Assembly (NCBI GenBank): GCA_964017195.1
Contig: OZ024896.1
Coordinates: 30,280,430-30,344,429 of the forward strand
Direction of reading: 5' to 3'
Origin: Siderastrea radians
Lineage: Eukaryota; Cnidaria; Anthozoa; Scleractinia; Rhizangiidae
Length of the DNA: 64,000 nucleotides
A model generated the notes under the pieces. The model was not told the origin of the DNA, did not search any database, and saw only the letters and a program-made list of their open reading frames with translations. Shown here piece by piece: positions 1 through 63,980 of the stretch. Made by a program: the position numbers and the translations under genes. Numbering within the stretch: position 1 is the first letter of the stretch; every line of letters begins with the position of its first letter.

Positions 1-57
1 TCCTACAGCAGAAATGGATACAAGTTTGTTCCCTACAGGGAAGGCAGGCGTACCAAG
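1..57 (+). CDS. Domain 1 (class A), 3' end of 5' exon
   Basis: Nineteen in-frame codons ending REGRRTK before a GTAATG donor. They match the end of the class A exons at 37771 and 55236 (KEYRRTK, REGRRTK). The remaining part of the exon lies left of the window. Confidence 0.85.
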
Positions 58-511
58 GTAATGATTTTTCGGTGTGCTTGGTTTTCACGTTGCAGGCGTA
101 ACGAGGCGGCCGCTTTCATAATAACTGGAGATGCATTATCCATCTGGGACTTAGCTTTTCTTGTAGTGTGTCTCGTAGTTTATCTGTATAAAGACGGGCA
201 CAAGAAGTGTTATGCATCCAGACACTTAACTGTTTACTGGTTACTGGAAGACGAATAATTCATCTGCTGCTGGACCTTATACAATGGAGGTATGCTCCAG
301 ATGACGGAAGCTTCCAGACGGGCCATTGGCTAGTTTGCCTTAGCTGAACGACGCATTGCGCCAAGTCCGTCTTGTGATCACCTTGATACAGAAAAGCAAT
401 GCGTCTACTATAGATGAACAAATTTGCGTCCAGATAAACTGACGACTTTTATTTTTTCTCGAACGGTGCATTAAGCTAGTGAACACAGCTGCAGCATTAA
501 CCAACAGCAAC

Positions 512-600
512 CACAACACAACAACAACATCATCATCGTCGTCATCATCATCATCATCATCATCAATAACAACAACAAGATCAAAAACAGCAACAATAAC
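512..600. repeat. CAA/CAT low-complexity tract
   Basis: Runs of CAA and CAT/CGT triplets inside the domain 1 intron. The Ser/Thr-rich reading frame across it is only a product of the repeat. Confidence 0.8.
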
Positions 601-744
601 ACCAATTACAACATCAATAACATATTACCCTCAAACCCTCAAAAACTTTGTTTTGAAGCTTATTTTACATTTTGAAATGAGCTCTGCAAATCAAGTTCTT
701 GTTGTTTAAGCAAAACTAATTCACATTTTATTTGCTGCCTGCAG

Positions 745-886
745 ATTTTCCAGGGTAATTACGATCGGTACGTCATCGTACGTCACAAGCTCGCCAAAGG
801 TATAACTGCTCGTTACTTCAGGATACACCCGGTCACGTGGTACAGCTGGATCTCAATGCGAGTTGAATTTTACGGTTGCGTTGTCG
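745..886 (+). CDS. Domain 1 (class A), 3' exon
   Basis: 142 nt after a TGCAG acceptor, ending with one split-codon base before GTAAGT. Encodes IFQGNYDRYVIV, then RYFRIHPVTW and ISMRVEFYGC with the closing Cys. The PVTW signature is private to class A and recurs in domains 9 and 17. Confidence 0.9.
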
Positions 887-2108
887 GTAAGTGAGAAAAG
901 AGTTGTGTGCCTGGAGGGATGAAGGAACACACATGGTACTATCTTTCAGTTTGCAAACCGTGGAACCCCGCCGGAGGATCACTGTCTTGTGGCCCAAATT
1001 AAAGCTCAGCCATTTTCTTATGTCAAAACTTCGTTAATCCCAAAGCCGCGTTAAGGGGAACCTCGACCAACTTTTAAGAAACCTAATCTGTCATCTTCAT
1101 TATAATACAACCATTTGAAAGGGCGACCATGCACTTCTCAGAACCCCTCACAGGATTGGTTGAGGAGACAATGAAACAAACAACGGAACAATCTTGCTAC
1201 AGTTGTAGCCCTGAAAACAATAGAGGTGTTAACAGGGTCCAAGGAAATTAGAGGTTCCGAAGAGAGGCATGGCTGTCGATTTGAAATGCCTGGCAGCTTA
1301 AACTAAAAAAGCAAACAAAAATTTTAGGCTATCATAACGCTACCCTAATGGTTTTCGTTCCTTTTTTTAGGCTGTCATAATGCGACTAACACTTCTGGCC
1401 CATCAGTAGTCGTATTCAGGGGATCCACATTATTATAAAAAAACGGCCTGTGGATTTGAGAAATAGCGCGTTCGTGTGTTTTTTTTTTCTTACTTTTATT
1501 ATCGGATGATATTATTCTATCAGGGAAGTCGCGAAAATACTTCCTTGGGGGGAAAAGTTTTTCTCTTTATGATACAAAATTTCTCTCAACACAGGGCGTG
1601 GCTCTTTGAAAACAAACAAACAAACAAACAAAACAAACAAACAAACAAACACACAAAGAAACAAATAAATGGAAAACGAGGATTCCTATTAATGTCAGCC
1701 TACCTGAGATCAGAGCCAACTTGGTGTTGCGCGCTCGTTGGCTATGAACTCATCTAGTTCGTTACAGCCTTCACTAGAAATTCGCATTCCTGAGCGTGAG
1801 CACTTTTTACTTTCAGCCTTTTTCGTTTTCACTCAATTTTTCTACGATTTCAAAGACTAGAACAATCAAAGCCTTGCCTGCATAGCAAGCGTCTTCCGTA
1901 GGGTATTTCGCGTAGAGGGGGAGGGGAGGGGAGGGCAGTGGTTGTCACTCTCGCTTCTACCGGCTCCTACGACAAAAAAGCGAAAAAAGTACAAAACAAA
2001 CAAGCAACAACGAAAACCACTGAAACGCTTACTATGCAGGCCATCAAGGAAAGGTCGGCGTGGGGGTTAAAATAGTCATATTCACATTGTCCTTATTCCT
2101 ATTCTTAG
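887..2108 (+). other. Intron between domains 1 and 2
   Basis: No gene seen. It holds an (AAAC)n tract near 1609-1660, a GAGGGG-rich patch near 1915-1935, and a short duplicated motif around 1327 and 1369 (GGCT.TCATAA). Confidence 0.6.
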
Positions 2109-2434
2109 GGCCAAGGTGCAACAAACCTCTTGGAATGCAAAATGGGCGCGTACGCTCGACACAACTGAGCGCTTCCTCCAGCTGGGACCGTAATCACGGC
2201 CCTAACAACGGCAGACTTTATCTGCGTAGGGTTGGCCCCCGAGCAGGAGCCTGGTGCGCGCGTCACAACAACCGTCTCCAGTGGTATCAGGTGAACTTTG
2301 GTCGCCCCACACGGGTGGTGAAGGTCGCTACTCAGGGACGACAAGATTACCGGCAGTGGGTGACTCAGTATTATTTGTCGTTCAGTCAGGATGGAATACA
2401 CTATGCGGAATACAAAGAGAATAGCAATCGAAAG
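2109..2434 (+). CDS. Domain 2 (class B), 5' exon
   Basis: 326 nt between a CTTAG acceptor and a GTAAGG donor. Begins GPRCNKPLGM, the class B start shared by domains 10 and 18, has SSSWDRNHGP and GAWCARHNN, and ends YKENSNRK. The frame is open upstream to a Met at 2060 with a hydrophobic stretch, but that part is the polypyrimidine tract of the acceptor, so the exon is started at the AG. Confidence 0.92.
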
Positions 2435-2527
2435 GTAAGGGCTGCGAATGATGTTTTATTTAGTATTCAACAGAACTGTGGTTATGTTAAGTATTAAATA
2501 CCTTTTTGAAACTTCTTTATTGTCAGT

Positions 2528-2613
2528 GCCTCGTTAGCGCAGTAGGCAGCGCGTCAGTCTCATAATCCAAAGTAGAAATCTGAAGGTCGTGAGTTCGATC
2601 CTCACACGGGGCA
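2528..2613 (+). tRNA. tRNA-Met (CAT), elongator type, with 13-nt intron
   Basis: Complete cloverleaf. The 7-bp acceptor stem pairs GCCTCGT with ACGGGGC, the T loop is TTCGATC, anticodon CAT is at 2561-2563 and the discriminator is A. A 13-nt insertion (about 2565-2577) follows position 37, the canonical place of tRNA introns. The body matches elongator, not initiator, Met tRNA. It lies inside the intron of discoidin domain 2, same strand. Confidence 0.9.
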
Positions 2614-2708
2614 AGGTATTCTTTTAAGGCGTTTGGTTAAACCTTTTGAGATGATCAAGATTGATCTACTATTTAAACAATAGAGTTCTTCTGTCGAAGA
2701 CACTATCG

Positions 2709-2785
2709 TGTGATAGGTTGCCCGAGGAAATTTGAGGTAACTCATATGAACTTTGAAAATCAAATTTCCGAGGGAACTATCACAC
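2709..2785. repeat. Short foldback repeat
   Basis: Imperfect inverted repeat: GTGTGATAG...GAGGAAATTTGA on the left is mirrored by TCAAATTTCCGAGG...CTATCACAC on the right. Probably a small MITE remnant. No target-site duplication found. Confidence 0.5.
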
Positions 2786-3255
2786 ATAGGGCTTCAGACA
2801 GAAGGACACTATTGTTTTTATTGTACAACGTTAAATTTTGAGCGAAAATTGCCCAAAACGGGCACTGTTCACTGATAGGCGCCCGCTGAGGAGAGACACT
2901 ATCAAGTCACGTTGGAGGACGCCAAAATTTACCGTTTACTATAAATAGGCATAGCATAAGGCCTCTTACAATGAAAACGCAGTTAGGTAAGCGTAAACGC
3001 AAGCGTAAACAAAACGATGAGAAACAAAGTCGCTCATTCTGTTGTCTGGTTTTTACAGAGACTTATTATTTTTACCTGGTTTTCAACGCTAAGAATCTCC
3101 GTGACTTTTTTAACATCCTGGCATCGCCTGGTGTTTGCGTTGATGTGTCGTGTTCGTCGCGCTCGTTTTCACGTTGACATATGTGCTGCCATGTTTGCAC
3201 TTATGCCTGCGGTTGTGCTTGTCGTGCTGATGAACCCGTTTGACAAAAAGACTGG

Positions 3256-4356
3256 TTAGTACTTTATGCCATTAAGAGTTGTCTTGTTGCGTCGTATCCT
3301 GCCGCAAGAACACACAATGTTTTTTAATCCGCGGCGGTAGCTTTCAACGAATGACAGAGAAATTATTGGATTTACAGCAGCCGAAGAAAAGAGCAAAAAT
3401 TCCGCTGTTATTGAAAATGTCTTGCGAAAGACACAAGAAGTTGACCAATAGTATACAAAGTACAAGAAACCGTGAGGAAGAGCACAAATGTAGTAGGCGA
3501 TCATTATCGCAAAGCACATTTGCACCGCTCGCTTTTGTTTCCTCAAAGAGTGTTTTTGTAGATTCGATGCCATATTTACTAAGGCTTTACTTTGCCGTTT
3601 TAAGGCAACTGCTATTGCTGTGTACAAAAAAGTCATTAAAGATAAAGGAACAATGGTGCATAAAGTCAAAACCAGCCAAAAATACACACTGTCAGCTTTC
3701 TGGTTCGGAAAAACTGATTTTCTATTTACAGGTGCACAGTACAGTGTGTTGCCGTTGTAAGAGAGCGTCCATGTAACCAATAAGGGAGAGTTGAACGCGA
3801 ATGCTACGATCCAAGATGAAGCGATAGCTGTAATTCGAATTTTTGTTGAAATCAGACCGATCTTCAAGGGAAATAAAATAGCCACAAATCTATCAATTGC
3901 TATCCACACTAGACTCTGAGAGGAAATCAAATAGGACACTCTTGGCGTGAAAGCATAAAACTTGCACAAAATCATACCTACAGTTCCACCAACTCGCCAA
4001 TGATGCGAACCGGTCGCAAATCCTGTTAACTGAATTGGAATCATGGTCAACGAAAACGCTAGATCTGAGACAGCCATATTCACTATAAAATAGTTAACTG
4101 TCTTGCGCAATTCCTGGCGTTTGAAGACCATGAAAATTATGAAGATGTTTCCAAGACAACATGCCGGCAAAAGAAAAGAGTACAATGATAGTGTGAATAT
4201 CTTTTCTTCTTTCGGCGAAACAACGGAACATGGCGAAACAGTTTGTAGTCCAACTGCAGTTATGTTGTCTGTTGCCAGCAGCGTTGCGTTTGAGCATGTC
4301 ATGATTTCTTGTTCAGTTCTGAAGCGAACTGTTAGTTGTCGAGAGATGTAGCTCAA
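3256..4356 (-). CDS. Rhodopsin-family (class A) G protein-coupled receptor, single exon
   Basis: 366 residues and a stop, uninterrupted, with all seven helices. The N-tail has N-glycosylation sequons near residues 23 and 31. TM1 is about 53-78 with GN at 69-70, and TM2 has D98. C131 and C207 are the likely extracellular disulfide. DRF at 155-157 stands for DRY, W182 is in TM4 and P237 in TM5. TM6 has CALP at 291-294, lacking the usual Trp of CWxP. TM7 has NPIIS at 329-333 instead of NPxxY. The role is plasma-membrane signalling through heterotrimeric G proteins; ligand unknown. The gene is intronless and antisense within a discoidin intron, suggesting retroposition or the intronless GPCR expansions known in cnidarians. 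A second Met at residue 19 could be the real start. Confidence 0.9.
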   Translation of the reverse strand: MSYISRQLTVRFRTEQEIMTCSNATLLATDNITAVGLQTVSPCSVVSPKEEKIFTLSLYSFLLPACCLGNIFIIFMVFKRQELRKTVNYFIVNMAVSDLAFSLTMIPIQLTGFATGSHHWRVGGTVGMILCKFYAFTPRVSYLISSQSLVWIAIDRFVAILFPLKIGLISTKIRITAIASSWIVAFAFNSPLLVTWTLSYNGNTLYCAPVNRKSVFPNQKADSVYFWLVLTLCTIVPLSLMTFLYTAIAVALKRQSKALVNMASNLQKHSLRKQKRAVQMCFAIMIAYYICALPHGFLYFVYYWSTSCVFRKTFSITAEFLLFSSAAVNPIISLSFVESYRRGLKNIVCSCGRIRRNKTTLNGIKY

Positions 4357-4428
4357 AATAAAGCGAAATGCATTTACAATTTATTTCTAACACCGGATAT
4401 TAAATTCATTTGACAAAGAAAGTCAATT

Positions 4429-4950
4429 ACCGTATAGCTTCGGTGCGCTGTGCACAAATAAAGAATTTTTCTTAAAATGAAAATAAAGAACCGGGTCAAA
4501 AATAAATAAAATAAGGAACTACATCAAACACAATTAAAAAACTCATTTATTTAACAATTCACCTGGAAGAACACAAAAGAAATAGAAAGTTAATAAATAT
4601 ATAAAGAATACTTCATGGAAAGTGTGTGCGTACGGTATTTACGCACGAGTTGGTTTAGTATCGGAAATCAAACGAGTGAGCGCAGCGAACGAGTGAGATT
4701 TGTGATACAAACCAGTCGACATCTTGCACGTCAAAGTCACGTACCTTATAGCATCGGTAAGCTGTGCACAAATAAAGAGTTTTTTTTTAATGAAAATAAT
4801 AAAGAACTGGGTCAAAAATAAATAAAATAAGGAACTAGATCAAACGCAATTAAAAACTCATTTATATAACAATTCAACTAGAAGAACACAAAAGAAATAG
4901 AAAGTTAATAAATATATTTAGAATACTTCATGGAAAGTGTGTGCGTACGT
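4429..4950. repeat. Tandem duplication of about 310 bp
   Basis: The segment from 4429 to about 4634 is repeated with small changes from about 4740 to 4947. Both contain GCTGTGCACAAATAAAG and end GGAAAGTGTGTGCGTACG. The flanks carry direct and inverted copies of a motif with ACTCGTTCG and CGAACGAGTGAG (4670-4705 and 4950-4985). Confidence 0.7.
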
Positions 4951-5375
4951 CTCACTCGTTCGTTGCGCTCACTCGTTCGATTTCCGATACAAACCAACGA
5001 GAATACCTCGACATCTTGCACGTATTCTCTTTCTGATTTATAGAAAAACTTGTTACTTTTGCTTGAGCTGTTTGTGTATTTTTTAGTGCCGGTTGGGTAA
5101 TACAAACAAACAGAAGCACGTTTGAATCAACAAGGCAGGGGCACCCAACGGTTCGTTTCGGGGAATATCTGTTCGGAAGGCCTAAAATCGTCTGAGATAT
5201 CCGGATTTAATTGCAGAGAAGGCTAGAGATTTCTTTGGCGAAACAGCACCTCGGACTATCTTAACAAGAATACTGATTAGTTCCTACTGTTTTCAGAGGG
5301 ACAGATATGTTGTTTAGAGTGCAAAATAAGGTCAGCTAGCATTTTGGAGTGCCATCCTGAGCAGGGGTCAATTTA

Positions 5376-5467
5376 ATAAAACATTTCCAAGTGTAATGTA
5401 CAGGTATAGCTATTGAAAAGAGGTTGAAAACAATAGCTACACTTGCAAATGTTTTATTAAATTGAAC
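5376..5467. repeat. Inverted repeat
   Basis: TCAATTTAATAAAACATTT at the left is mirrored by AAATGTTTTATTAAATTGA at the right around a short loop, with an 11-bp insertion in one arm. Likely a MITE remnant in the same intron as the GPCR. Confidence 0.55.
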
Positions 5468-6140
5468 CTAGCTCGGAAATTCCGCGGATTGGATTCTGTT
5501 TCCTCAAATTTTCTGCGGCCCGAATTTTCAGCCCAAACCGCCGAACAGGTCAATCTGTATTAGCTTACCCAAATTTACCTTTAAAAAGTTCTGGAGCAAT
5601 CTAAGAAAGCAGAAAATGATATTTCTAGTATTTTGCAAAAATGTTCTCGCTGGGTGCCCCTGACATAGGTTTTTTCTGGCTAAATTTACACTACAGGATT
5701 CGTTTCAACGGCGTTTACATACAAAGGGGTGAATCCGGTCTTGATAAGATCTTCATGGATCAAGTCACTAATCCGGATACTTTGAGTTAGAGTGAATACT
5801 TCATATCCGAATACTTATGAATCTGGAACATTTCATTGTGCAAACGGGTTTTTCAGTGAACACAAATACTTTATACGGCTTTTTTGCGTTCGCGTCCTCA
5901 GATCGTGCATTTATTCATGAAACCTTTGTTCTTGATATTCGTCTTGGTTGACGAGTATACGTCTGATGTCGTCCGGTATATTCTAATTCCGACCAATTTG
6001 CACGGTCTGTTAGAATCTGAACATTAGGTGAGTTCATCCCGGATGATTTTATCCCTGCACAAGCACCGGGATAAAACGTCATCTTGAGATGAAAAAGCCA
6101 CATAAACGCAAGGCGATTTTTCATCCCGTATAAATACAAG

Positions 6141-6172
6141 ACTGACGCGCTGCCTACTGCGCTAACGAGGCA
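6141..6172 (-). pseudogene. tRNA-Met 5' fragment
   Basis: About 32 nt on the minus strand equal the first half of tRNA-Met (acceptor 5' strand, D arm and start of the anticodon stem) and stop before the anticodon. No T arm follows, so it cannot be functional. Confidence 0.7.
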
Positions 6173-7057
6173 CCGATACGTTGATCGTTGCTTTTTTGTT
6201 AATACTTTTTTCCTGCTGAGAATCCTTTGTCATCCTTTTATCTTACCACGGTTTCTTCTTCAGTTCTTCATGACGGTCATACATTCTTATAAATAGAAAA
6301 ATTTAAAAAAGGCAAAAAGTCAGGAAATGATTTGTTTCGTTGTATATGAAATCGAACTTAGCTGGGGTTCCTCCGTTTTACAAGAAACTGAAATGAATGT
6401 TAGAATCCATTCAAAGTAATTCTAAAAAGAAGGAGAAAAAGTACACTTCTTACACCGCTTTGGTGCTAAAAATAATCATTTAGAAAGAAGAAAATTGCAA
6501 TTTCCACACAACATGGTTTGGCAAGATTGAGAGTATTGCGAACGGGGCTACTTTTTTCAAAATGACCAAACCGTCATATGCAAAGTTACGAAAGCAACTA
6601 CCCTCGTTACAATCGCTTTTAGCAACCTTTTGCTATCGATATTATTCATAAGTCGGGTAGCGAAAAGGTGTACCGTGTATGCGCCGATCTATCCCAATAA
6701 AAATAGTTACAAATGCGTTGAAAATACGCGCAGAGTTCTTGCTTAAACGATATTCATAACTGAGTGTTTTTCCAATACAACGTGGAAGAAATCAGTCTTT
6801 GTCCAGGCAATTTTTTGCGCGTAGACACAGCATGTATGAGTAAATTGGTAATTTTTTAGTTGCTTTTGGATTCATAAACAACCGTAAAATGTGTAGTACA
6901 ACGTTTCTTTCAAAAGTTCTCCAATTTTTAACTAATTTTAGCATGTATTCTCAAGCCGAATCACTCGATTTGACGTCGGTGAAATTACCGAAGAGAGCTT
7001 GTATTCAACAAAGATGGCCTTTGAACTGGATACTAATAACATGTGTATTTTTTTCAG

Positions 7058-7199
7058 TATTTCAGAGGCAACAGAGACCAGAACAGTGTTGTTCAACATG
7101 GCCTCTATCCTAGGATCAAAGCGTACATCATCCGGGTTCATCCATGGGGATGGTACAAACACATTTCCATGAGGGTGGAGTTTTATGGATGCACTGAAG
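7058..7199 (+). CDS. Domain 2 (class B), 3' exon
   Basis: 142 nt from TTTCAG to GTAAGA. Encodes YFRGNRDQNSVVQH, then IIRVHPWGWYKHISMRVEFYGCTE. The PWGWYKHIS stretch is the even-class signature. The intron before it (4.6 kb) contains the tRNA-Met and the antisense GPCR. Confidence 0.92.
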
Positions 7200-8062: not shown

Positions 8063-8367
8063 ATCGTTGCGTCATGCCGCTCGGTTTGGAAGACAAGCGG
8101 GTGCCAAACGGCCATCTGACCGCCTCAACGTACTACAACTATCATTTATCACCATGGCACGGACGGCTGAACGGAATCTACTCGTGGAGCGTGCGCACTA
8201 ATCGCGTGGGTCAGTGGTTCCAGGTGAACTTTGTTGAGTTGATGCGCGTTAAAGGCGTGGCTACCCAGGGACGACAAAACGCCAATCAGTGGGTGAGAAA
8301 GTACACGGTCAGCTACAGCGTCGATGAAATGAGCTTCAGACCTTATAAGGAAAATCGAGGCGTGAAG
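8063..8367 (+). CDS. Domain 3 (class C), 5' exon
   Basis: 305 nt, the short class. It starts DRCVMPLGLEDKR after TTCAG and ends KENRGVK before GTGTGT. The GAWxA segment of other classes is replaced by a shorter loop, LNGIYSWSVRTNRVGQW, which is conserved in domains 11 and 19. Confidence 0.9.
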
Positions 8368-8735
8368 GTGTGTGTTTGTAATACTGGTCTCACTAGTTGT
8401 CATAATAACAGTTGAAACTTTTCTTAAATATTTTGGTCAATTTTGAAATGTTACAAAAGAGAATATTTTCCAAATATCACACGCAGCTTATCAAATTATT
8501 TGCGTTTGTCACAGGACAAACAAGCTTCTTGCCTGTTCAGCTAAATTCTTGACGATCGGTGTACATCTCTCTCAAACCTTGTTTTCAAACGTTAAAAGCG
8601 GCACTTAATAAGTTTGGCTTGTAAAAAACGCATTCCACTCGATTCTTTTGTTTCAGTTCCGACAAAACAATCTCTCCCATTTCTCAAGTTTGTCCACATG
8701 AAAATGCCCGCGATTTTATTTTGGAAATCTTGCGA

Positions 8736-8893
8736 CAAATGTGGAAAGCATCAATGTAAAGAAGATCCTCGCAGTTATTAACGCAACTTATGCAGTTGCG
8801 AAAAGAAAGCCTGAAAAAATCAGGCTTGCCGGGATTCGAACCCTGGCCTCTGCGATACCGGTGCAGCGCTCTAACCAATTGAGCTAACAAGCC
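8736..8893 (-). mobile_element. tRNA-derived SINE (coral type), truncated
   Basis: A tRNA-like head (8822-8893) is followed on the minus strand by TGATTTTTTCAGGC and a body containing TTAATAACTGCGAGGATC. The same body sequence forms the arms of the palindrome at 8948-9119, so the unit is dispersed rather than unique. Confidence 0.65.
8822..8893 (-). tRNA. tRNA-like gene, Thr (GGT) by anticodon position; probably SINE head
   Basis: The 7-bp acceptor (GGCTTGT with GCAAGCC), a D arm and a TTCGAAT loop are present, followed by a T6 stretch. The anticodon loop CCGGTAT has C at position 33 instead of the near-universal T, and the stem has an A-C mismatch. Association with a repeated body makes a SINE promoter more likely than a working tRNA. 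Confidence 0.4.
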
Positions 8894-8947
8894 AACTGGG
8901 AGCTGGTCATTAAATTGGTTCGTAATATACCCGGGAAAGATGAAGAT

Positions 8948-9119
8948 GAAATTATGAATATATGAAATTCATATATTTGAACTGCGGAATGAAGAAATCA
9001 ATGTAAAGAAGATCCTCGCAGTTATTAACGCAACTGCGTTAATAACTGCGAGGATCTTCTTTACATTGATTTATTCATTCCGCAGTTCAAGTATATGAAT
9101 TTCATATATTCATAATTTC
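8948..9119. repeat. 172-bp near-perfect palindrome
   Basis: Two 86-bp arms match as inverted copies with two mismatches that I can see and no spacer; the centre lies between 9033 and 9034 (TTAACGCA-AC-TGCGTTAA). The arms are SINE body sequence joined head to head. Confidence 0.85.
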
Positions 9120-9279
9120 AAATGTGGAAACGTTGCTCTGTCATAAACAGTTTTACAGCAGCTCTATTTTTGATCAATCGCATTTCAGTAATTTCTGAGC
9201 CTGTATTGTGAGCTGTGAGTTATGTTAGACTCCTTACCACTTCTTACGTATCAATTATGGTTTTTTTTCCTTTGTATAG

Positions 9280-9418
9280 ATCTTCAGTGGCAACACAGAC
9301 CGTCACTCGGTAGTTTATCACCAGTTCCTCAGACCGTTCACGGCCATTTACGTCCGCATATACCCGAGGACCTGGTATGGTTGGATTTCTATGAGAGCTG
9401 AGCTTTACGGCTGTTCAG
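9280..9418 (+). CDS. Domain 3 (class C), 3' exon
   Basis: 139 nt, three shorter than most, from a TATAG acceptor to GTAAAC. Encodes IFSGNTDRHSVVYHQF and WYGWISMRAELYGCS. The DRHS and YGCS signatures recur in classes C11 and C19. Confidence 0.9.
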
Positions 9419-9923: not shown

Positions 9924-10249
9924 CGTCGCTGTGTAACCGCCCCTTGGGAATGCGCAATGGTCGTATCCGCAACAACAGAATCACGGCATCATCTTCTTAT
10001 AACCGGTACCACGCCGCCTGGCTTGGCAGACTGGGACGAGTCAAGTCTGGGAGATATATTGGGGCGTGGTGCGCAAAACACAAGAATTATAATCAGTGGT
10101 TCAAGGTGGACTTTGGCCGACTGATGAGGATTACAAAGATATCTACTCAGGGAAGACAAGATGCCGGACACTGGATTACGTCATACTATTTGTCATTTAG
10201 CACAGACAATGTACATTGGGCGATGTACCGGTTTAGAAGCGCTAATAAG
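9924..10249 (+). CDS. Domain 4 (class D), 5' exon
   Basis: 326 nt from TTTAG to GTGAAA. Starts SLCNRPLGMRNGRIRNN and contains SSSYNRYHAAWLGRLGR and GAWCAKH, ending YRFRSANK. Class D domains (also 12 and 20) share the LGRLGR stretch and HW in place of F in the last strand. Confidence 0.9.
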
Positions 10250-10709
10250 GTGAAAATATAGGAATTACTTCAATACTTGAGACTTTACTATACTTCTCCA
10301 CTGTACTGCTTCACGAGTTAGCTAAGGAATGACTATTTCGAGTCTTCACAGTCAAAGTCACTACATCTCAACGAGCCAATGAGGTTAATAATTAGGGCTC
10401 GTTTGTTCAAAGCAGCGTTTAAACTAACCCAGGGTTGAATTCAGTTTGGTGGCTTAACGATGTAGATGATTTTTGTCCTACGTTTTGACTTTGGGAGAAA
10501 AACAGAAGCCAGGCCCACAGTTTTCACCATCAACTGCCTGTCAAATTACACTTTACTACAAAGGTGACTAGTATTGCATTTTTTCAAAACGTCGGTCACC
10601 AACAGCAGCCCTTTAAGGACTGCCCTCACATAGACGACCTGACAATACCAAATAAGCTACTGAGTCGATACTTTACTTTACTTTTTTGTCGTATTTCATT
10701 ATTAAACAG

Positions 10710-10851
10710 CTCTTCCAAGCCAATCGTGATCAAAACAGCATTAAAATCAACGCTGTCAATCCCGCCATCCGAGGTCGCTTCATCCGCCTTCATCCGCGAG
10801 GCTGGCATGGCCACCCCTGTCTGAGGGCAGAATTTTACGGTTGTCCAGTCG
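10710..10851 (+). CDS. Domain 4 (class D), 3' exon
   Basis: 142 nt from AACAG to GTAAGA. Encodes LFQANRDQNSIKINAVNP, then HPRGWHGHPCLRAEFYGC. An extra Cys replaces Ser in the conserved HIS position (HPC). Confidence 0.9.
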
Positions 10852-29953: not shown

Positions 29954-29954
<1 letters not shown>

Positions 29955-53320: not shown

Positions 53321-53354
53321 GTGAGTAGTTTCCGGCCGTTTTCCACCCGTTAAT

Positions 53355-53550
53355 ATCAGTATGCAAATTCTCGTTACTAGTCTCCATACATTTTGTTAAG
53401 TACCAGTTGGGAGAACTTGTTTATACATTAAGACAGTTCATCTTTGGTGTTCATTTCCCTAATTCTCGTGACCTTTATGTTTTATAATGCTCTGATATGA
53501 TGAGGAGAAATTTGATGCTGATCACCATTGGGGCTGAAAGGGTTAAGCGT
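53355..53550 (+). repeat. Dispersed repeat, plus copy
   Basis: Third member of the family at 37385 and 45225. Ends GATCACCATTGGGGCTGAAAGG. Confidence 0.7.
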
Positions 53551-53696
53551 GTATCATAAATAGTATAGTTAAAGACGCTCGGTTACCTATGTTTAGGATC
53601 ATTTTAAAAAGCTTAAGGACATATTACAATTAAAGGAAACCAGAAAAGAGTGATTCCGTTTTCTTTAAACTTGAGTAACTCTGAAACTGTAGTTAA

Positions 53697-54227
53697 AAGG
53701 GCTACGTCACGAGGATTTTGGTAGTTTAGGTCAATTCTGTGCTAAAATCATTGCCTGGTGTTCCTGTAATACTATGAAGAAGATATCAAACGAATTTTAT
53801 TAGTTCCAGCTAATCATAATAATTTTTTTTGGTGATTTTGAAGAACATAGCCTCAGAACACCATTATTTTTGGAATTCAATTGATGCGAAGACACTTTTA
53901 GCTTTTTTAAAAAATACTAAAATAGCGTGACATAGTCCCTTTAAGTGTAAGAAAAGATGGAATATTTCGGAATGTGGCGAGCGAAGGACAAAGAATCCCT
54001 CCGGTTTGTTTGGCTGCGGATGCTAGGATTCAAATGGATTGCAACTTGAGAAAATGAGGCAAATGGTCTTATAGAAATCGCCAGAAACTAATTATGGTTT
54101 CTTCTACTTTTGCGAAAATCATTAAATTTCTTTCTCTTGATGTTCACGGTGCATTTCGTGTAAAAGAATTTGAATTTAGACACATTTTCACCCCAAAACA
54201 TGAGAAAATTCCCGTGAAGTAGCCCCT
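53697..54227. mobile_element. TTAA-flanked MITE
   Basis: Left AAGGGCTACGTCACGAGGAT and right (inverted) AGGGGCTACTTCACGGGAAT, inside TTAA at 53693-53696 and 54228-54231. A similar terminus, CGTGACATAGTCCCT followed by TTAA, lies at 53939-53942, so two elements may be joined. Confidence 0.7.
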
Positions 54228-54280
54228 TTAAACAATTCAAATAAAACAGCAGCACGTTTCAGTGGTGCGGTTAAATGTGC

Positions 54281-54510
54281 TGTACAAGGTGGTTCTAACG
54301 TTTGAGTCTGTGCATGGATGAAATCCTTAAGTGTGACCATTCAGATGAAAGCTACTGAGCAGTACTTTCCTGTGATGCTGTTTATTATGCTGTAGAAGGT
54401 GATTCTAACTTTTGAGTCTGTGGATAAAATCCTTAAGTGTGACCACTCAAATGAAAGCAGTACTTTCTTGTGGTTGCTGTTTTTTATGTTGTAGGTGGCT
54501 CTAGACTTTG
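54281..54510. repeat. Tandem repeat of about 115 bp
   Basis: Two copies of GGTG.TTCTAAC.TTTGAGTCTG...GATAAAATCCTTAAGTGTGACCA. A third, diverged copy lies at about 61885-61985. Confidence 0.7.
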
Positions 54511-54642
54511 TGTATGTTGCTGAAATATAAACGTCGATTGTATAACATTGGACGATAAAGTTCACTAGACCGGAATGACTATACGAATTTTCAGCTCTGA
54601 TATTTTTCTGACTGTTCTTGAAACGATCTTCTTTTTTTATAG

Positions 54643-54784
54643 ACTTTCCCTGCTAATGTGGATAGGTATTCAGTTCGGAACAATCCTCTTCCCTATCCCA
54701 TATATGGACGCTTTGTTCGTTTGCAAGTTCGTGGTTGGCGTGGACACATTTCAATGAGACTGGAGCTGTATGGATGTCCATGGA
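54643..54784 (+). CDS. Domain 16 (class H), 3' exon
   Basis: 142 nt from TATAG to GTAAGC. TFPANVDRYSVRNNPL, then QVRGWRGHISMRLELYGCPW with the last Cys present. Closes the second eight-mer, 451 bp before the third. Confidence 0.92.
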
Positions 54785-55235: not shown

Positions 55236-55558
55236 GTCGCTGCGACGTTCCACTTGGTATCGAAGATGGTCGTTTCCCTGATCAGCTCATCACCGCTTCC
55301 TCGTTCTACAACTATTACTGCGCGCCGAGAAACGCCCGGCTGCATCAGCGACGTGTGGGGCGGTACGGAGGGGCGTGGTGTGCGCGGCGTAGCGTCAGGA
55401 ACACGTGGATTCAGTTTGACTTTGGAGGTCGTACTCGTGTCACGCGTGTTTGCACGCAAGGTCGGCAAAATGCTGATCAGTGGGTCACCAGTTATTACGT
55501 GACGTTCAGCAAAGATGGTCAGCGGTTCATACCATACAGAGAAGGGCGTCGTACTAAG
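55236..55558 (+). CDS. Domain 17 (class A), 5' exon; third eight-mer starts
   Basis: 323 nt from TTCAG to GTAGAG. RCDVPLGIEDGRFPDQLITASSF, NYYCAPRNARL, GAWCARRS, RVCTQGRQ, ending EGRRTK. Three extra Cys residues besides the opening one. Confidence 0.92.
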
Positions 55559-55616
55559 GTAGAGGAGCTATTCTATTTCAAAACTTCATGAAGGAATAAT
55601 TGATAGTTTACTTTAA

Positions 55617-56672
55617 AGAGCCAGCGTCACCCAAGGTGCTTTGCGCGCCGCGGTACATTTTTCATATATGAAAAATCAGCCATGTTCTTGATTGTTGTGA
55701 AGTCTGATTTGTATCTTCTTCCATCGCTAGCGTTAGCGATCCGAAAGCACTAGTGTGAGTTTTGTCTCGACATTTAAGTGTCTTCGTATCTATTTAGTTG
55801 TATATTTCCGAATTCTGAAGTGTTTTCGCGGTGGAGAAATGGATCTTTAAATTGAATGCTTCATAGGGTTCAGGAAAACTGAGGCGAAGGCGGAGTCTTC
55901 AGGGCTCTACCAAACTTGTACGGCTGAAGAACTCCGTGTATCAGTAGCGGAGGGAAAGAAAATCATCTACGGGTATTAGCAATAGTTCTGACACTGCGTT
56001 TGCTGAAATAGTGCAACATTCGCGTTGCCGGATGAAAACAGAAGGAACGTTAATTTACCACAAAATAACAGTAGCTACGGGCCTGCTCCAGAATAATGCT
56101 TATGGTCATGTCATGAGCTTGTGCTGTTTTTCTTAATTATTCCTTGTGTTCACTGTCTGCTTGTGTTTTATTTTTACAAAAAGTGTAATTCTGGTTTTGC
56201 GTCCATCGACATCGGCCGATGCGATCGATCGCGCGATCAATCATTCGGACTGTAATAGATCCATACGCATTGAATGCGAAGTAAGAGCTTAGAGCAGTTT
56301 TCTCCAGTGATATCTCGCGATGAAGACGTCAATATTCTTACTATTTGTTTTGTCTTGTTTTTATATCGAGCAGAAATGGCTGCTCTGGTTTTACGTCCAT
56401 CGAGATCGGTCGATCGATCAATCGATCGGTTGCTATAATAGCTCAATACGCGTTGACTATAAAATCAGATCTAAAGTTGTTTTCTCCAGTAAAATCTAGC
56501 GATGAAGATATTTTCTTTTTCAGAGGCTACTACTTTAGATATCAGCTAGCTGAAAGGCCAGTGCGGCACGGTATAATTTGCGAAAAGTCCGGCAAACGCG
56601 CCAGCCAAATGCTAAAAGCTGTTTCAAAACAAAAATACAAGCACGCAAAGCACTTTGGGTGACACTGGCTCT
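55617..56672. mobile_element. 1.06-kb TTAA-flanked TIR element
   Basis: AGAGCCAGCGTCACCCAAGG is mirrored by CTTTGGGTGACACTGGCTCT, directly inside TTAA at 55613-55616 and 56673-56676. A block of about 160 bp (GGTTTT.CGTCCATCGA..TCGGTCGAT) is duplicated at about 56190-56340 and 56380-56530. No transposase seen. Confidence 0.8.
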
Positions 56673-56717
56673 TTAAACGCGTCGTATTAACTTGTAAGTT
56701 ATCCCATTTCTCCTTAG

Positions 56718-56859
56718 ATATTTGTCGGTAATTACGACCGATATATAGTTGTCTGCAATCGATTCGTGAGGCCGCTATCAGGACGATACTTCAGGATTTA
56801 TCCTGTTACTTGGAGAAGCTGGATCTCAATGAGGGTGGAATTCTATGGTTGTATTACCG
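56718..56859 (+). CDS. Domain 17 (class A), 3' exon
   Basis: 142 nt from CTTAG to GTACGT. IFVGNYDRYIVVCNRFVRP, then YPVTWRSWISMRVEFYGCIT. VVCNRF carries the Cys that co-occurs with VCTQG in the 5' exon. Confidence 0.92.
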
Positions 56860-57646: not shown

Positions 57647-57972
57647 GCCCAAGGTGTAACCGTCCATTAGGAATGCAGAATGGCCGCATACGACAAACAC
57701 AACTGTCAGCTTCCTCAAGCTGGGATGTCAATCACGGTCCGCCGAATGGACGCTTGCACTTCCGCCGCACAGGTTCCCGGATGGGTGCATGGTGCGCGCG
57801 TCACAACAACCGGTACCAGTGGTATCAGGTGGACTTTGGTCGTGCCATGCGTGTAGTTAAGATAGCCACTATGGGAAGGCAGGATGCGGCTCAGTGGGTC
57901 ACGCAATATTTTGTCACGTACAGTCAGGATGGCGCGAGTTTTGCTGAGTACAAGGAGAACAGCAACAGAAAG
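57647..57972 (+). CDS. Domain 18 (class B), 5' exon
   Basis: 326 nt from TTAG to GTAGGG. PRCNRPLGMQNGRIRQ, SSSWDVNHGPPNGRL, GAWCARHNNRYQW, ending YKENSNRK. TMGRQ replaces TQGRQ. Confidence 0.92.
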
Positions 57973-58131
57973 GTAGGGATGGCGATACTGGTTCCACAGA
58001 TCGCGGTTTTTGTGGCTTGCGTAGAAGGAAAAAATTAAGCGTAAATTCGTTTCACCTTCAAAACCGATGAAGCAATAATTTTGGTAATTTCTAATTTTTA
58101 AAAAACCATTGAAAATGTAATTTAAAAAATT

Positions 58132-58217
58132 TGCCCCGTATGAGGATCGAACTCGCGACCTTCAGATATCTAATGTGCATTATGAGACAGACGCGCTGCC
58201 TACTGCGCTAACGAGGC
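58132..58217 (-). tRNA. tRNA-Met (CAT) with 13-nt intron, degenerate
   Basis: Same length and intron position as the gene at 2528 (intron sequence differs). The acceptor pairs, but there are mismatches in the anticodon stem and T stem (CTCAT for CTCAC), so function is doubtful. Antisense within the domain 18 intron. Confidence 0.65.
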
Positions 58218-58577
58218 ACCTGTTAAAGCGAAATCTGTGTTTCCATATTTTAAGTGCTTTTTATTGTACCTGTTTTATCCTGAGGATTTACTTTTTGAAG
58301 CCAGTTTGTAATCACGTGATTAGAAATTAACATTTCTTTCAAGAATAATTTTCACGGCATGCTATAAATTAACTTTTCTATCAGATTTGTTTTAAGTATT
58401 AACTAAATGATGAAAAAATAATTTACAGGTGGTTAGCAAATTTGGTATTGGGAAAACACGTCGAGTGAAATTCTTTCAGAAGTTAACGACTGTTTGTTTG
58501 CATAACATTTAGTGGAACATAGAACGTACTTTGTAAATAAGAACGTTACCAGTTATCGTTCGCTTTATCTTTTTCAG

Positions 58578-58719
58578 TACTTCACAGGAAATCGAGATCA
58601 GAATAGTGTTGTCCAATATCGCCTCTTCCCGCCAATCAGAGCTCGGTTCATACGCCTGCGCCCTTGGGGCTGGTACAAACACATTTCCATGAGGGTCGAG
58701 TTCTATGGATGTCCAGAAG
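58578..58719 (+). CDS. Domain 18 (class B), 3' exon
   Basis: 142 nt from TTCAG to GTAACG. YFTGNRDQNSVVQYRLFPP, then RPWGWYKHISMRVEFYGCPE. Confidence 0.92.
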
Positions 58720-59285: not shown

Positions 59286-59590
59286 GCCCATGCAACGTTC
59301 CACTGGGCATGGAAGACAAAAGGATCACAAATGGCCAGTTAACGGCCTCGTCCTATTACAACCATTACTTGGCACCATGGCACGGCAGATTGAATCATCG
59401 CTGGTCCTGGAGCGTGAGGCATCGTAACAACAGACAGTGGTTCCAGGTGAATTTCCAGGAAATTTACCGAATCAGAGGTATTGGTACCCAAGGCAGACAG
59501 GATGCCAACCAGTGGGTGAAGAGCTACACTCTGTCTTATGGCATGAACGGCGTAGATTTTGCTCAGTACAGAGAGAACGGAAGAGTTAAG
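59286..59590 (+). CDS. Domain 19 (class C), 5' exon
   Basis: 305 nt from AACAG to GTACGG. PCNVPLGMEDKRITNG and the short loop LNHRWSWSVRHRNNRQW, ending RENGRVK. Confidence 0.92.
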
Positions 59591-59618
59591 GTACGGTGAA
59601 TGAGAAATCCCTGCGTAC

Positions 59619-60452
59619 ATTTGACTCCCGATAACTCGAACCTTCAAGGTAAGGCCGCACACGAGCCAAGGAGGCCCACACAACCGGAGCTTATCCCGGT
59701 TTGTGTAGCATGAAGCAACTGAGAGTATTGCTACTCCCCCCTGGATGGGATGCTAGTCCATCGCAGGGTTACCCCCAGCAGTATTTCGCCGTTACCCATT
59801 TAATACACCTGGGTGGAGAAAGACAATTTGCGGTGAAGTTTCTTGTCTAAGGAAACAACACGATGCAGGGACTGGATCTCGAACCACCGACCTTCAGATC
59901 TGAAGTCCGACGCGCTAACGACTTTACCACCGCACCTCCGCGAAACTTCAAGGGAAATATAAAAAAGTTCGAGTTATCGGGAGACGGCATCAAAGAACCA
60001 GAATTGCAGAAATTAGAGAAACGTGAGCTAATCATCTAACAATAGGAGGCGAAAATATACCGAATCAAGTTAAACTTAAACTTGACCAATCCTTTGTTAT
60101 TCTGTTTGGCCTACTTGCAAATGCAAAACAGCAGTTTTTCTCATACAAAGCTTGCTTCCGCGAGTGCTAGTTGTAGTCAATTCTAATATATAACACACGC
60201 ATGTTTCAATACACAATTTATGTTCATAACACACTCGCGGCAGTTGTCAAATAAGGTTCGAGCTATCAAGGGTAAAATTAGTAAGAAAATGGCCTGAAGG
60301 GAAAACGGATTTACTTGGAGTTAACGAGAGATTCGAGATATCTAGGGTAAATTTACTCTAAATGTATGGAGCAAATCTAGGGGGAATCAATTTTGGTTCG
60401 AGTTAGCGCGAGCTTCGAGTTTCCGAGGGATCGAATCACCGAGAGTCAACTG
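59619..60452. mobile_element. Mariner-like non-autonomous element split by a SINE
   Basis: The left end TTTGACTCCCGATAACTCGAACC resembles the inverted right end GTTGACTCTCGGTGATTCGA, with TA at 59617-59618 and 60453-60454. GTTCGAGTTATCGGGAG at 59967-59983 is a perfect inverted copy of the left end. No transposase. Confidence 0.55.
59650..59945 (-). mobile_element. tRNA-derived SINE, nearly complete
   Basis: The minus strand begins with a tRNA-like head (GGTGGTTCGAGATC B-box region near 59880), then a body with GCGATGGACTAGCATCCCA and a 3' part containing CCGGGATAAGCTCCGG. An 8-bp duplication CTTCAAGG flanks it (59642-59649 and 59946-59953). It sits inside the mariner-like element. Confidence 0.8.
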
Positions 60453-60886
60453 TAATGCAGTGAGACCCCACCTTACTTCCACATCGTTTGTACTACAGTA
60501 TTACCTTTTTTTACGGCCGCTTTAACTTCTTTTAAAAGTTCTGAACAAAAGCTCGTCTGGTCATTTTATTTTGTGAAAACTTCGTTAATACGAGCGCCTC
60601 GTTACTACCCATCGTGGGCAGACTTTTAGGCAGAAATTGAAAGATGGGAGTGCTAAAAGTATGTCATTTTAAAGGTTGAGGTAAACTTTCCTTCAAACCG
60701 GCTGGAAAATTTACGTGGGGAATTAAGTATCCCTTTTATGTTGTGATGAGCAGCGAGCGAAAACCGAGGAGAGAAGTACAAAGTTCCTAGTCTAGAAAAT
60801 CAAGTGAAATTACATTTTTAGAAATGATAGAAAGGACGGTACGGTACATTACTACCAATAGGGGGTTAAGGTGTCCGCTCAAGATT

Positions 60887-61470
60887 ACCGTAAACTGCCG
60901 CTTATAAGTCCCCCCGCTTGTATTCCTCCCCCCGGTTATAGGCCCATGTACCTGTAAACAAAAAAGCACATCTGGTTCTAAGCCCCCCTGGATATAAGCC
61001 CCCCTCTAGTTTTCTTGTTTCCTGGTGAGTTTGAAGAAGAAAGCCAGACCACTCAGTAAAGTAGACATTAACACTGCCAATTTAAATAGCGAAGATGACC
61101 TCAAATTAAGTGCGGAAATCCTCAGCGATGTGAACTAGACATTAAAACCTTTAACAGTGATAGCGAAGATGAACTCTGAGCTTCTGTTTTGTTGCGTTCC
61201 AGTTACGTTCGTGTTGTTACAGTTTTGATTTTGTTCTTAAAATTAAAATGAATTCGATTTATCATGATGTTTTAAAGCTTAATTAAAAGCAAGTAAGCTT
61301 AAATTAAAAATGTATTTCGATCAACACTGCTGTGGCTCATTTCGAAACACTTTTAAATTCCGCTTATAGGGCCCCCCCCTCCCTCAGATATAAGCCCCTC
61401 CATTTATAAGCCTACCCAAAACCCCTTACGAAGTTGTATAAGCCCAGGGCTTATAAGGGGCAGTTTACGG
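60887..61470. mobile_element. 584-bp TIR element with TA flanks
   Basis: CCGTAAACTGCCGCTTATAAG at the left and CTTATAAGGGGCAGTTTACGG at the right, with TA on each side (60885-60886, 61471-61472). The interior has several C-rich TTATA(A/G)GCCCC motifs. Tc1/mariner-type by target site. Confidence 0.8.
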
Positions 61471-61664
61471 TACCGCCCTACATTGGAGTTTTGGCAAACA
61501 GGAGAGCGCGCAGTACTTCAACATTTCCTTTCTGTGGGTTACTTTTCGCAAGATTATTTTCTAAGTCTTAAACCCTGCAAAAAAGAAGGGAAACATAGCC
61601 CACTTAAAGTAAATTGCAATAGGGCATTTGTGTATAATTTGGTGTTTGTTCATTATATCTGCAG

Positions 61665-61803
61665 TTGTTTGCAGCCAACACAGACCGCCATTCGCTTGTG
61701 TATCAGCGCTTCAGAAAGCGAATAGCCGCTGTATTTGTCAGGGTGCATCCTAAGTCATGGTACGGCTGGATATCAATGAGAGTTGAAGTGTTTGGATGCT
61801 CAG
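61665..61803 (+). CDS. Domain 19 (class C), 3' exon
   Basis: 139 nt from TGCAG to GTAGGA. LFAANTDRHSLVYQRF, then HPKSWYGWISMRVEVFGCS. Confidence 0.92.
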
Positions 61804-62477
61804 GTAGGACCAATAATATTACAACGGCATTTTCGTTGAGATTTAACCCTTTCACCCGCTGAGTCAGTCATGGAGACATTAAGGTGACTCTAACTTCTGA
61901 GTCTGTGGATAAAATCCTATGGCGTGACCATTCAAATGAAACCTCGCCAGCAGCACTTTCACGTGGTACTATTTATACTTAAGTATTTTACAAAATGAAA
62001 TTAGGGATTCGTCTTGAAGTTTGATTTTAGGCACTCCACTCTTGGGAGTGAGAGGGTTAAAAAGGGTGAACACTATCCAGTCTTGAATGCCAAGTATGCC
62101 ACGGGCCTTCAAGCAATCGAAAACAAGACAAATAAACCGAACGTCTCAGTAGCAATCACTCCTTTCTTGTGGTTTCGGATCTTCCGTTTATTATTCTGTT
62201 ATTTTTGGTCACGGCACAATTAAAATATCAAGCTCAGAACGCCAGTGTCTATACTATTCTCAAAGTAATGAAAGAGAGAGAACCACAGGAATAAAGCTTT
62301 CCATTCTTTGAGTCGTTTGTTAAAATAGGGGCAGACATGGCGTAACATGTGGTGCTGCTACTAGAGAATGTTGGCGTTTTTTGAGATAAGAAGATTCTTC
62401 TCCCAGATCCAGTTTCTGAGCAAATTGATAAAAAATTGTTTTGGTCGATCAAAAAGAGAAAAAAAGGTAAAATAATG

Positions 62478-62563
62478 TGTCCCGTGTAAGGATCGAACTC
62501 ACGACCTTCAGATGTCTACTTTGGATTATGAGACTGACGCGCTGCCTACTGCACTAACGAGGC
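62478..62563 (-). tRNA. tRNA-Met (CAT) with 13-nt intron
   Basis: 86 nt like the copies at 2528 and 58132. Intron sequence close to that at 2565. Most stems pair, but position 2-71 of the acceptor is a C-A mismatch. No T run immediately after the gene, which weakens the case for function. Confidence 0.7.
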
Positions 62564-62657
62564 ACCTGTTCAGAACTTCCATTTCTTTGATTTATTTATC
62601 AGCAACTTATTGTTAGTCTTACTTGGACTAACGCTAGAATTTTGTTCTTTTCTCCAG

Positions 62658-62983
62658 CTGCGCTCTGTAACGGTGCCTTGGGCATGCGAAGCGGTGCTAT
62701 CAAGAACGCCCAAATCACAGCTTCTTCATCGTACAACAGATATCATGCAGCCAGCCTCGGAAGACTGGGTCGGGCCAAGCGCGGTCGGTACGTGGGGGCA
62801 TGGTGCGCAAGACACAACAATCACAACCAATGGCTTAAAGTTGACTTTGGCCAACCAATGAAAATCACGCAAATAGATACACAAGGAAGGCAGGATTACG
62901 GCCAATGGGTGACGAGATACCTTTTGAGTTCAAGTCAGGATGGAATTCACTGGAGCTTGTACAGATACAAGAGCAATGATAAG
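62658..62983 (+). CDS. Domain 20 (class D), 5' exon
   Basis: 326 nt from CCAG to GTAGAA. ALCNGALGMRSGAIKN, SSSYNRYHAASLGRLGR, GAWCARHNN, ending YRYKSNDK. Ala replaces Pro after Cys-Asn-Gly. Confidence 0.92.
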
Positions 62984-63838
62984 GTAGAAATAAAATAATG
63001 TTAATATGCTGACATATAATATTAATATAATAATATATAATATAATATTATAAAATTGAATATATGAATATTAATATGTTGACAAGAATAATGCAAATTA
63101 CGTTTCCTGACTTTTCCTATCCAGAGAAATCAATTTGAAATTCAAGTGAGTTGATCGTGTTTTAGAGGGTATCTGCGCTACAATATCAAGATGTTTTGGA
63201 ATTTAGTCGTAGTTAGCAGTAAGACAATTTGCCGTTTTGGATACTAAATTTGCAACTTGATTTTATTCTCCAACCTGTATACCTCCACCTTTGCTACCCT
63301 TAATAATTGGCGATTTAACTAGGGTGACAATGCTAAATAACGCAATGCGCTTTTTTTTAATTAAATCACCGCAATAACTCGTTACCGGGGTCTTGGCAAT
63401 GACTTGAGTTTAAAGTTGTGTTTGGCTGTGGCTGTGAGAAAGAAATGGCTCAAACTTACACTGAGTGTTTACTATTTCCAAAAAAAGCCTAGAAATTTCG
63501 GTTGGACTGTAAATAGTAGGGCTATTTGGGTTTGCCTGACCGGAAAATTTCCAAAATCTGAAACGGAGGTAGTCCAAAATTCTCAACCGGAATATCCAAA
63601 CGGAAAATTGTGCTTCCATTTACTTTTTTCTACCAGTTCCAGGTCCTGGACCAATAGTCAAACTAAGTCCAGACTCCCTGTTAATAACAGTGAACTGTAC
63701 AAATAGTACATGTTAATGTCGAACCGAATTTTCCGTTCGGGAGGTTTCGCTTACTACCGATTTCCCCCTGTAAATGGTAAACAACCTATATTTCGCTTTA
63801 GATTATTCATTCTCACTTTTATTTTCTTGGTTTTTAAG
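62984..63838 (+). other. Intron inside domain 20
   Basis: Begins with a TAATA-rich stretch (63000-63075). From about 63455 to 63790 there are loosely mirrored TGTTTACTATTT and AAATGGTAAACA motifs that suggest an eroded MITE. The 100-codon frame at 63404 has no family resemblance. Confidence 0.45.
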
Positions 63839-63980
63839 TATTTCCAAGCCAACCGTGACCAGCACAGTAAAGTTTCAAACGTTATCAACCCACCAATCAT
63901 AGCCCGGTTCATTCGCATCACCCCGCGAGGCTGGTATCGCCATATCTGTATGAGGGTGGAGTTCTACGGCTGCAAAGCAG
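63839..63980 (+). CDS. Domain 20 (class D), 3' exon
   Basis: 142 nt from TTAAG to GTATAT. YFQANRDQHSKVSNVINPP, then TPRGWYRHICMRVEFYGCKA. An extra Cys replaces Ser in HIS, as in domain 4 (HPC). Confidence 0.92.

What the first reader, a model, noticed from the sequence alone, without database searches (positions are those of the whole stretch)
1..63980. Eight-domain higher-order repeat of discoidin domains, two and a half copies
The domains fall into eight classes that recur in fixed order. 5' exon lengths are A 323, B 326, C 305, D 326, E 323, F 326, G 323, H 329, and 3' exon lengths 142, 142, 139, 142, 142, 142, 145, 142; every complete exon of a class has the same length. Private motifs agree: GPRC and KENSNRK in B, the SWS loop in C, LGRLGR in D, GGWIAKYRN in E, PMGLQN in F, DIYHTV in G, WWD in H. 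So 3,717 coding nt (1,239 residues) were duplicated as a block, with intron positions, at least twice. A discoidin gene built this way is not something I know as described.
Basis: seen in the sequence. Interest (0 to 1): 0.9.

Follow-up and report, generated by a model that had tools for sequence, protein, structure and literature searches.

The report
Eight-domain super-repeat in coral gene
Part of a giant stony-coral gene is made of one protein module, the discoidin domain, repeated in a fixed order of eight distinct versions, and the same order is found in related corals, so the eight-part unit is ancient and has been kept rather than blurred.

Summary
Trees put each of the eight classes (A-H) together; block-wise or neighbour-wise trees are about 700 log-likelihood units worse. 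All 11 window domains with a Pocillopora counterpart pair with the same individual copy, so the blocks existed before the Porites and Pocillopora lineages split. The kind is known (nebulin, titin super-repeats; six-discoidin sea-urchin nectin as functional analogue), but my searches found no description of this one. Function is inferred: a long, basic, secreted adhesive or matrix rod. No transcript was seen.

The parts
1..886 (+). A0: discoidin domain, 5' exon cut by window edge (1-57), 3' exon 745-886
   Evidence: 88% identical to domain 3 of P0001 over 64 residues, 64-67% to the five other A copies compared
2109..7199 (+). B1: exons 2109-2434, 7058-7199
8063..9418 (+). C1: exons 8063-8367, 9280-9418
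9924..10851 (+). D1: exons 9924-10249, 10710-10851
11538..12431 (+). E1: exons 11538-11860, 12290-12431
   Evidence: PF00754 E 2e-28 on the joined domain
12604..15121 (+). F1: exons 12604-12929, 14980-15121
16936..18287 (+). G1: exons 16936-17258, 18143-18287
19036..19983 (+). H1: exons 19036-19364, 19842-19983; both terminal Cys absent
19984..37770 (+). 17,787-bp intron H1->A1 holding the antisense tRNA-Arg tandem array
37771..38927 (+). A1: exons 37771-38093, 38786-38927
39354..39952 (+). B2: exons 39354-39679, 39811-39952
40285..41219 (+). C2: exons 40285-40589, 41081-41219
44827..46171 (+). D2: exons 44827-45152, 46030-46171
46741..48381 (+). E2: exons 46741-47063, 48240-48381
49694..50551 (+). 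F2: exons 49694-50019, 50410-50551
51034..52139 (+). G2: exons 51034-51356, 51995-52139
52992..54784 (+). H2: exons 52992-53320, 54643-54784
55236..56859 (+). A2: exons 55236-55558, 56718-56859
57647..58719 (+). B3: exons 57647-57972, 58578-58719
   Evidence: FVIII light chain and FV are the best PDB sequence matches, best E 1.4e-44
59286..61803 (+). C3: exons 59286-59590, 61665-61803
62658..63980 (+). D3: exons 62658-62983, 63839-63980; next class expected E beyond the window
   Evidence: P0001 continues E F G H A B C

Best explanation
The window is the middle of one giant stony-coral gene whose product is a chain of discoidin domains built as an eight-domain super-repeat. Shown: eight classes in fixed order, each domain a two-exon module with a class-specific exon length, copies old and under purifying selection, order kept in predicted proteins of several coral genera. 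Inferred history: a two-domain (odd + even) unit was multiplied to eight, the eight diverged, and the octet was then copied as a block several times, with intron positions, by unequal recombination in the phase-1 introns between domains, before the Porites and Pocillopora lineages parted. Inferred function (about 0.4 by itself): a secreted, strongly basic, disulphide-bonded rod with 4-6-residue linkers that presents eight different surfaces at regular spacing to acidic glycans, lipids or matrix proteins, working like sea-urchin nectin in adhesion or matrix assembly and like a titin/nebulin super-repeat in its periodicity.
Against: No transcript or protein was seen; neither end of the gene lies in the window or in P0001. 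P. damicornis models are split (P0167 EFGHA, P0003 from B2). A 17.8-kb intron with an antisense tRNA array lies between H1 and A1. Of the 15 'neither' domains, 8 come from one A. digitifera protein (P0011) that is far diverged or partly misaligned; without P0011, P0012 and P0159 the count is 78 both, 7 neither, 2 one. In the first window block the copy-by-copy pairing with P. evermanni is not perfect: G1 does not pair with its counterpart and C1 pairs first with an Acropora copy. Register is poor in P0011, P0012 and P0179, also stony-coral proteins. Function has no direct evidence.
Confidence: 0.75

Rival explanations
1. Two or more adjacent genes, each an octet-like array, rather than one gene; the long H1->A1 stretch with tRNAs would be intergenic.
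For: 17.8-kb gap with a tRNA array; P. damicornis has two models, P0003 and P0167, both listed with a contig of 316,455 bases, so presumably one contig; no ends seen.
Against: H1 ends at a donor and A1 begins at an acceptor that fit each other like the other junctions (phase partly by construction); five seeds found no other discoidin exon in the gap; the P. evermanni model runs through H(10)-A(11) as one protein, although that is only a prediction.
Confidence: 0.15
2. A pattern-recognition or symbiont-recognition lectin: each class binds a different glycan, and the array is a multi-specific receptor or opsonin.
For: Discoidin domains bind sugars in some proteins (recalled); classes are kept distinct for a very long time.
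Against: Copies of a class look to be under purifying, not diversifying, selection (dN well below dS); strong uniform positive charge suggests polyanion binding rather than many specificities. Neither point excludes it.
Confidence: 0.2
3. Skeletal organic matrix protein: the basic rod organises acidic skeletal proteins.
For: The seven proteins with more than two thirds of steps in register, of 149 with four or more domains compared, are all from stony corals. PMC4890752 (two passages) discusses F5/F8 type C domains, with TSP1 and VWA, among coral skeletal proteins of unusual architecture.
Against: No proteomic evidence for this gene; in a search on skeletal organic matrix none of the 15 listed of 121 papers holds the word discoidin (supplements could not be read). 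Database sampling outside stony corals is uneven.
Confidence: 0.2
4. Assembly artefact or recent tandem copy-number noise.
For: None found beyond the repeat nature itself.
Against: Copies of a class differ by 16-46% in protein, corresponding introns do not align, and the same copies occur in P. evermanni at 88% and in P. damicornis at 81.5% mean identity.
Confidence: 0.01

Closest known systems
Nebulin (seven-domain super-repeat)
   Same: One domain family amplified in blocks of fixed size with a repeating exon pattern (PMC1553488, passages: unit of seven domains, matching block of four exons).
   Different: Muscle protein of short repeats (recalled); exon borders fall inside the domains (passages). 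Here folded domains of 147-156 residues, two exons each, borders between domains and once within, and extracellular (inferred).
Titin A-band super-repeats
   Same: Repeats of repeats; domains at equal positions more alike than others; position-specific linkers and conservation (PMC10665226, abstract and passages).
   Different: Mix of Ig and FnIII domains; intracellular; period tied to the thick filament. Here one domain family and no known periodic partner.
Sea-urchin nectin (six tandem FA58C domains, adhesive)
   Same: Secreted chain of discoidin domains only; P0190, named nectin variant 3, is among the hits, with unnamed sea-urchin proteins of like length (P0188, P0189).
   Different: Six domains, 984 aa (PMC10057474, passages); P0188, P0189 and P0190 have 0 of 5 neighbour steps in octet register.
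Coagulation factor V/VIII C domains, neuropilin b1b2, lactadherin
Other coral discoidin arrays (e.g. Oculina P0121, Acropora millepora P0006)
   Same: 26 and 20 tandem F5/8C domains in one predicted protein.
   Different: Near-identical domains (91% mean identity), charge +0.5 and +4.6 per domain, no lag-8 signal, no step in register.

Membership tests
F5/8 type C (discoidin) domain, PF00754 | Match to the profile above the curated cut-off | tested here: met
   Joined E1 domain 99.4 bits, 5' exon of B1 alone 62.2 bits, cut-off 28.2 (pieces of 2 of 20 window domains given)
F5/8 type C (discoidin) domain, PF00754 | Jelly-roll fold of FV/FVIII C domains | tested here: met
Super-repeat (block-duplicated domain) protein | Domains at equal positions of the unit form clades | tested here: met
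Super-repeat (block-duplicated domain) protein | Fixed order of classes over several units | tested here: met
   window 2.5 units, P0001 29 of 29 domains in order
Super-repeat (block-duplicated domain) protein | Exon pattern repeats with the unit | tested here: met
   all 39 complete exons
Super-repeat (block-duplicated domain) protein | All units in one transcript | not testable with these tools
   only gene predictions available (P0001)
Super-repeat (block-duplicated domain) protein | Period matched to a periodic partner (titin, nebulin) | not testable with these tools
   no partner known
Nectin-type adhesive protein | Six FA58C domains | tested here: not met
   20 domains in the window, 29 in P0001
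Nectin-type adhesive protein | Signal peptide | not testable with these tools
   the N-terminus is not in the window
Nectin-type adhesive protein | Adhesive secretion | not testable with these tools
   -
Membrane-binding (phosphatidylserine) C2-type discoidin | Lipid-inserting spike residues | not tested
   -

The most novel reading that the evidence does not exclude
The octet is a molecular ruler of the coral extracellular matrix or skeleton: each of the eight positions keeps its own partner, the two-domain alternation sets the rod's geometry, and the eight-domain period matches a periodic target. Class G, the best conserved position between copies (74-85% in P0001 against 51-69% for H), would be the main contact. 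If so this is an extracellular counterpart of titin or nebulin that arose in stony corals or shortly before.
Probability: 0.2. Interest if true: 0.85.

Novelty: new member of a known kind. Interest (0 to 1): 0.6.

Why it matters
Super-repeats are best known from muscle giants, where the period reflects a filament. An all-discoidin octet kept in register, copy by copy, across deeply separated stony corals says that both the order and the individual identity of eight domain types are under selection in what looks like an extracellular protein. It gives coral biologists a conserved giant gene (stony corals only, as far as sampled) that the annotations seen here leave unnamed or split, with class-specific probes for expression, proteomics and binding tests.

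Tried and rejected
Branching order of the four odd and four even classes: AU tests on 59 domains reject only 1 of 30 topologies; a neat doubling 1-2-4-8 with A/E, C/G, B/F, D/H as sisters is neither supported nor rejected (AU 0.107). Halves ABCD|EFGH and pairs AB|CD|EF|GH are rejected by AU (p 0.0002 and 0.00006); the halves are not rejected by the SH test (p 0.28).

Lack of N-glycosylation sequons (0 in 3,004 residues; about 19 expected) looked striking, but other coral arrays also have none, so it is not diagnostic.

Gene conversion as the cause of class similarity: rejected overall because copies pair by orthologue across genera. In G1/G2, third positions are 80-88% identical in six of the first seven 25-codon windows (64% in the first) against 40-56% in the seven later ones; A1/A2 and E1/E2 show a weaker rise, B1/B3 none. 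Local conversion or constraint there is possible.

First structure job (5 sequences) gave a useless model and was not searched. An N-terminal region of P0002 had no PDB sequence match at E 0.01. A VWD domain was found near the end of P0012 but inside P0011, so I do not claim it as the gene's end.

In one search the class profiles were trained on window, P0001 and P0003 domains, so 28/28 and 12/12 for those two are circular; (window domains only) is the independent test for them. In one search 120 of 227 hits were listed and examined; only hits with E up to 1e-60; one search listed 54. One search took domains of nine of the 261 retrieved proteins plus the window and left out envelopes covering under 120 profile positions. 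The arrays include isoforms of one gene (P0004/P0005, P0160-P0164). Papers that held both Porites and discoidin (PMC5755313, PMC6526912) were not opened.

Window species: not identified. It is nearer to Porites evermanni (88%) than to Pocillopora (81.5%), and less close than two species of one genus usually are (judgement).
Full report
What is there. A translated search of the window with five window-derived seeds, followed by splice-site placement, gives 20 discoidin domains on 40 plus-strand exons. Donors are GT in 40 of 40 and acceptors AG in 39 of 39 cases, with a phase-1 intron before each domain, phase 0 inside and phase 1 after. Sites and phase were sought that way by the script, and alternative GT or AG pairs lie near many sites, so this count is partly by construction; the P. 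evermanni model has the same linker length at 19 of 19 matching junctions, which supports the placement. The joined frame is open over 3,004 codons. Pfam finds F5_F8_type_C in both pieces given, and the closest solved sequences to domain B3 are factor VIII and factor V, then neuropilin and lactadherin.

The octet is real. In maximum-likelihood trees of the 19 complete domains each class is a clade. Constraining blocks or neighbour pairs to be monophyletic costs 713 or 704 log-likelihood units. Mean identity is 68.6% at lags 8 and 16, about 50% at other even lags and 41.8% at odd lags; none of 20,000 order permutations reaches the lag-8/16 value.

The even-lag excess and the strongly supported split of A, C, E, G from B, D, F, H (99.7/100) mean that two kinds of domain alternate. 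A two-domain alternation is therefore nested in the octet. Further doubling steps cannot be ordered: 29 of 30 topologies survive the AU test.

Relatives. The best hit is a 4,476-residue predicted protein of the stony coral Porites evermanni, 88% identical over the whole query (P0001). Classified by BLAST against window domains alone, its 29 domains read GHABCDEF three times and then GHABC. The window's partial A0 matches domain 3 best (88% against 64-67% for five other A copies), so the window corresponds to domains 3-22, and P0001 runs on with E, F, G, H, A, B, C. A Pocillopora damicornis protein (P0003) reads BCDEFGHABCDEF. Further predicted proteins keep the register: P0002 (P. evermanni, on a different contig) in 15 of 16 neighbour steps, P0159 (Acropora digitifera) 7 of 8, P0166 (A. 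digitifera) 6 of 6, P0169 (Montipora capricornis) 5 of 5, P0167 (P. damicornis) 4 of 4. Of 149 retrieved proteins with four or more domains these five, P0001 and P0003 are the only ones with more than two thirds of steps in register. Register is poor in P0011 (A. digitifera), P0012 (M. capricornis) and P0179 (Acropora cervicornis).

Age. In a tree of 117 domains, all 11 window domains that have a P0003 counterpart (B2 to D3) group with the same individual copy in P. evermanni and P. damicornis rather than with their own paralogues. In the first block, which P0003 lacks, six of eight domains (B1, D1, E1, F1, H1, A1) pair with their P. evermanni counterpart; G1 does not and C1 pairs first with an Acropora copy. 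Orthologous identity averages 88.4% (window-Porites, 19 domains), 81.5% (window-Pocillopora, 11) and 79.3% (Porites-Pocillopora, 11), against 51-85% between copies of a class within P0001. The two genera lie in the suborders Refertina and Vacatina, which I recall as the complex and robust clades; PMC3224782 (passages, abstract included) puts their split at about 415 Ma and cites about 300 Ma from earlier work. Silent sites between block copies are near saturation or beyond except in G (dS 0.75), dN is 0.16-0.38, and corresponding introns do not align beyond one 36-bp stretch.

Controls. Among 43 arrays of ten or more domains (window plus 42 retrieved proteins, some isoforms of one gene), only the window, P0001, P0002 and P0003 have a lag signal that no permutation in 1,000 reaches, at lag 8 or, in P0001, 24; the next best is p 0.017 (P0011, lag 4). 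Against uniqueness of the alternation: five other coral arrays (P0010, P0008, P0013, P0019, P0015) have a weak lag-2 signal, p 0.023-0.037. The octet proteins also stand out by charge: +16.4 to +18.5 per domain, as does P0011 (+20.8); the 38 others range from -6.8 to +12.2, 30 of them between -0.6 and +4.6.

What is known. Block duplication of domains with exon pattern is established for nebulin (PMC1553488, passages) and titin (PMC10665226, abstract and passages; domain blocks only), and six tandem FA58C domains make the sea-urchin adhesive nectin (PMC10057474, passages). My searches for this coral gene or for discoidin repeats in corals listed no description (open-licence PubMed Central only; I saw listings, 15 of 121 and 12 of 17 papers, and read passages of PMC4890752). 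It is a new member of a known kind, with an unusual domain, an unusual setting and an unusually well-kept register.

Limits. No transcript, no protein, no gene ends; the window's own genome could not be searched because the tool was unreachable.

Noticed in passing
20432-36549 (minus strand), inside intron H1->A1: Tandem array of 28 tRNA-Arg(ACG)-like copies by blastn (26 called by ARAGORN, one of them as tRNA-Leu), with spacings near 485, 587 and 572 bp that often follow each other as a unit of about 1.65 kb; of 27 extracted copies (26 here plus the one at 16404) 12 are identical and five have a damaged 5' arm.
   Followed up: partly
16404-16476 (minus) and 15635-15709 (plus): A further tRNA-Arg(ACG) copy with flanking similarity to the array, and a tRNA-Arg(TCG)-like gene, in intron F1->G1.
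   Followed up: no
3256-4380 (minus strand), inside the intron of B1: Uninterrupted open frame of 374 codons (stop to stop) with a rhodopsin-family 7-transmembrane receptor, PF00001 E 3e-38, nested antisense.
   Followed up: partly
51034-51356 versus 16936-17258: 5' exons of G1 and G2 are far more alike at third positions over most of their length than the rest of the domain: possible local gene conversion or constraint.
   Followed up: partly
7345-7377: Short discoidin-like stretch (HISKRGEFYGC, E 0.04) in the intron after B1, perhaps a piece of a duplicated 3' exon or chance.
   Followed up: no
P0167 and P0003 (P. damicornis, presumably one contig): P0167 ends at a class A domain that groups with P0001 domain 3 (A0's counterpart), and P0003 starts at B2. 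If the two models are neighbours, exactly one octet (B1-A1) is missing between them: a copy-number difference or an annotation gap.
   Followed up: partly
14021-14575 (plus), intron of F1: 184-codon open frame (stop to stop) with several Cys, unrelated to the domains by eye; not identified.
   Followed up: no
whole spliced protein: No N-glycosylation sequon in 3,004 residues where about 19 would be expected; shared with several other coral discoidin arrays.
   Followed up: partly
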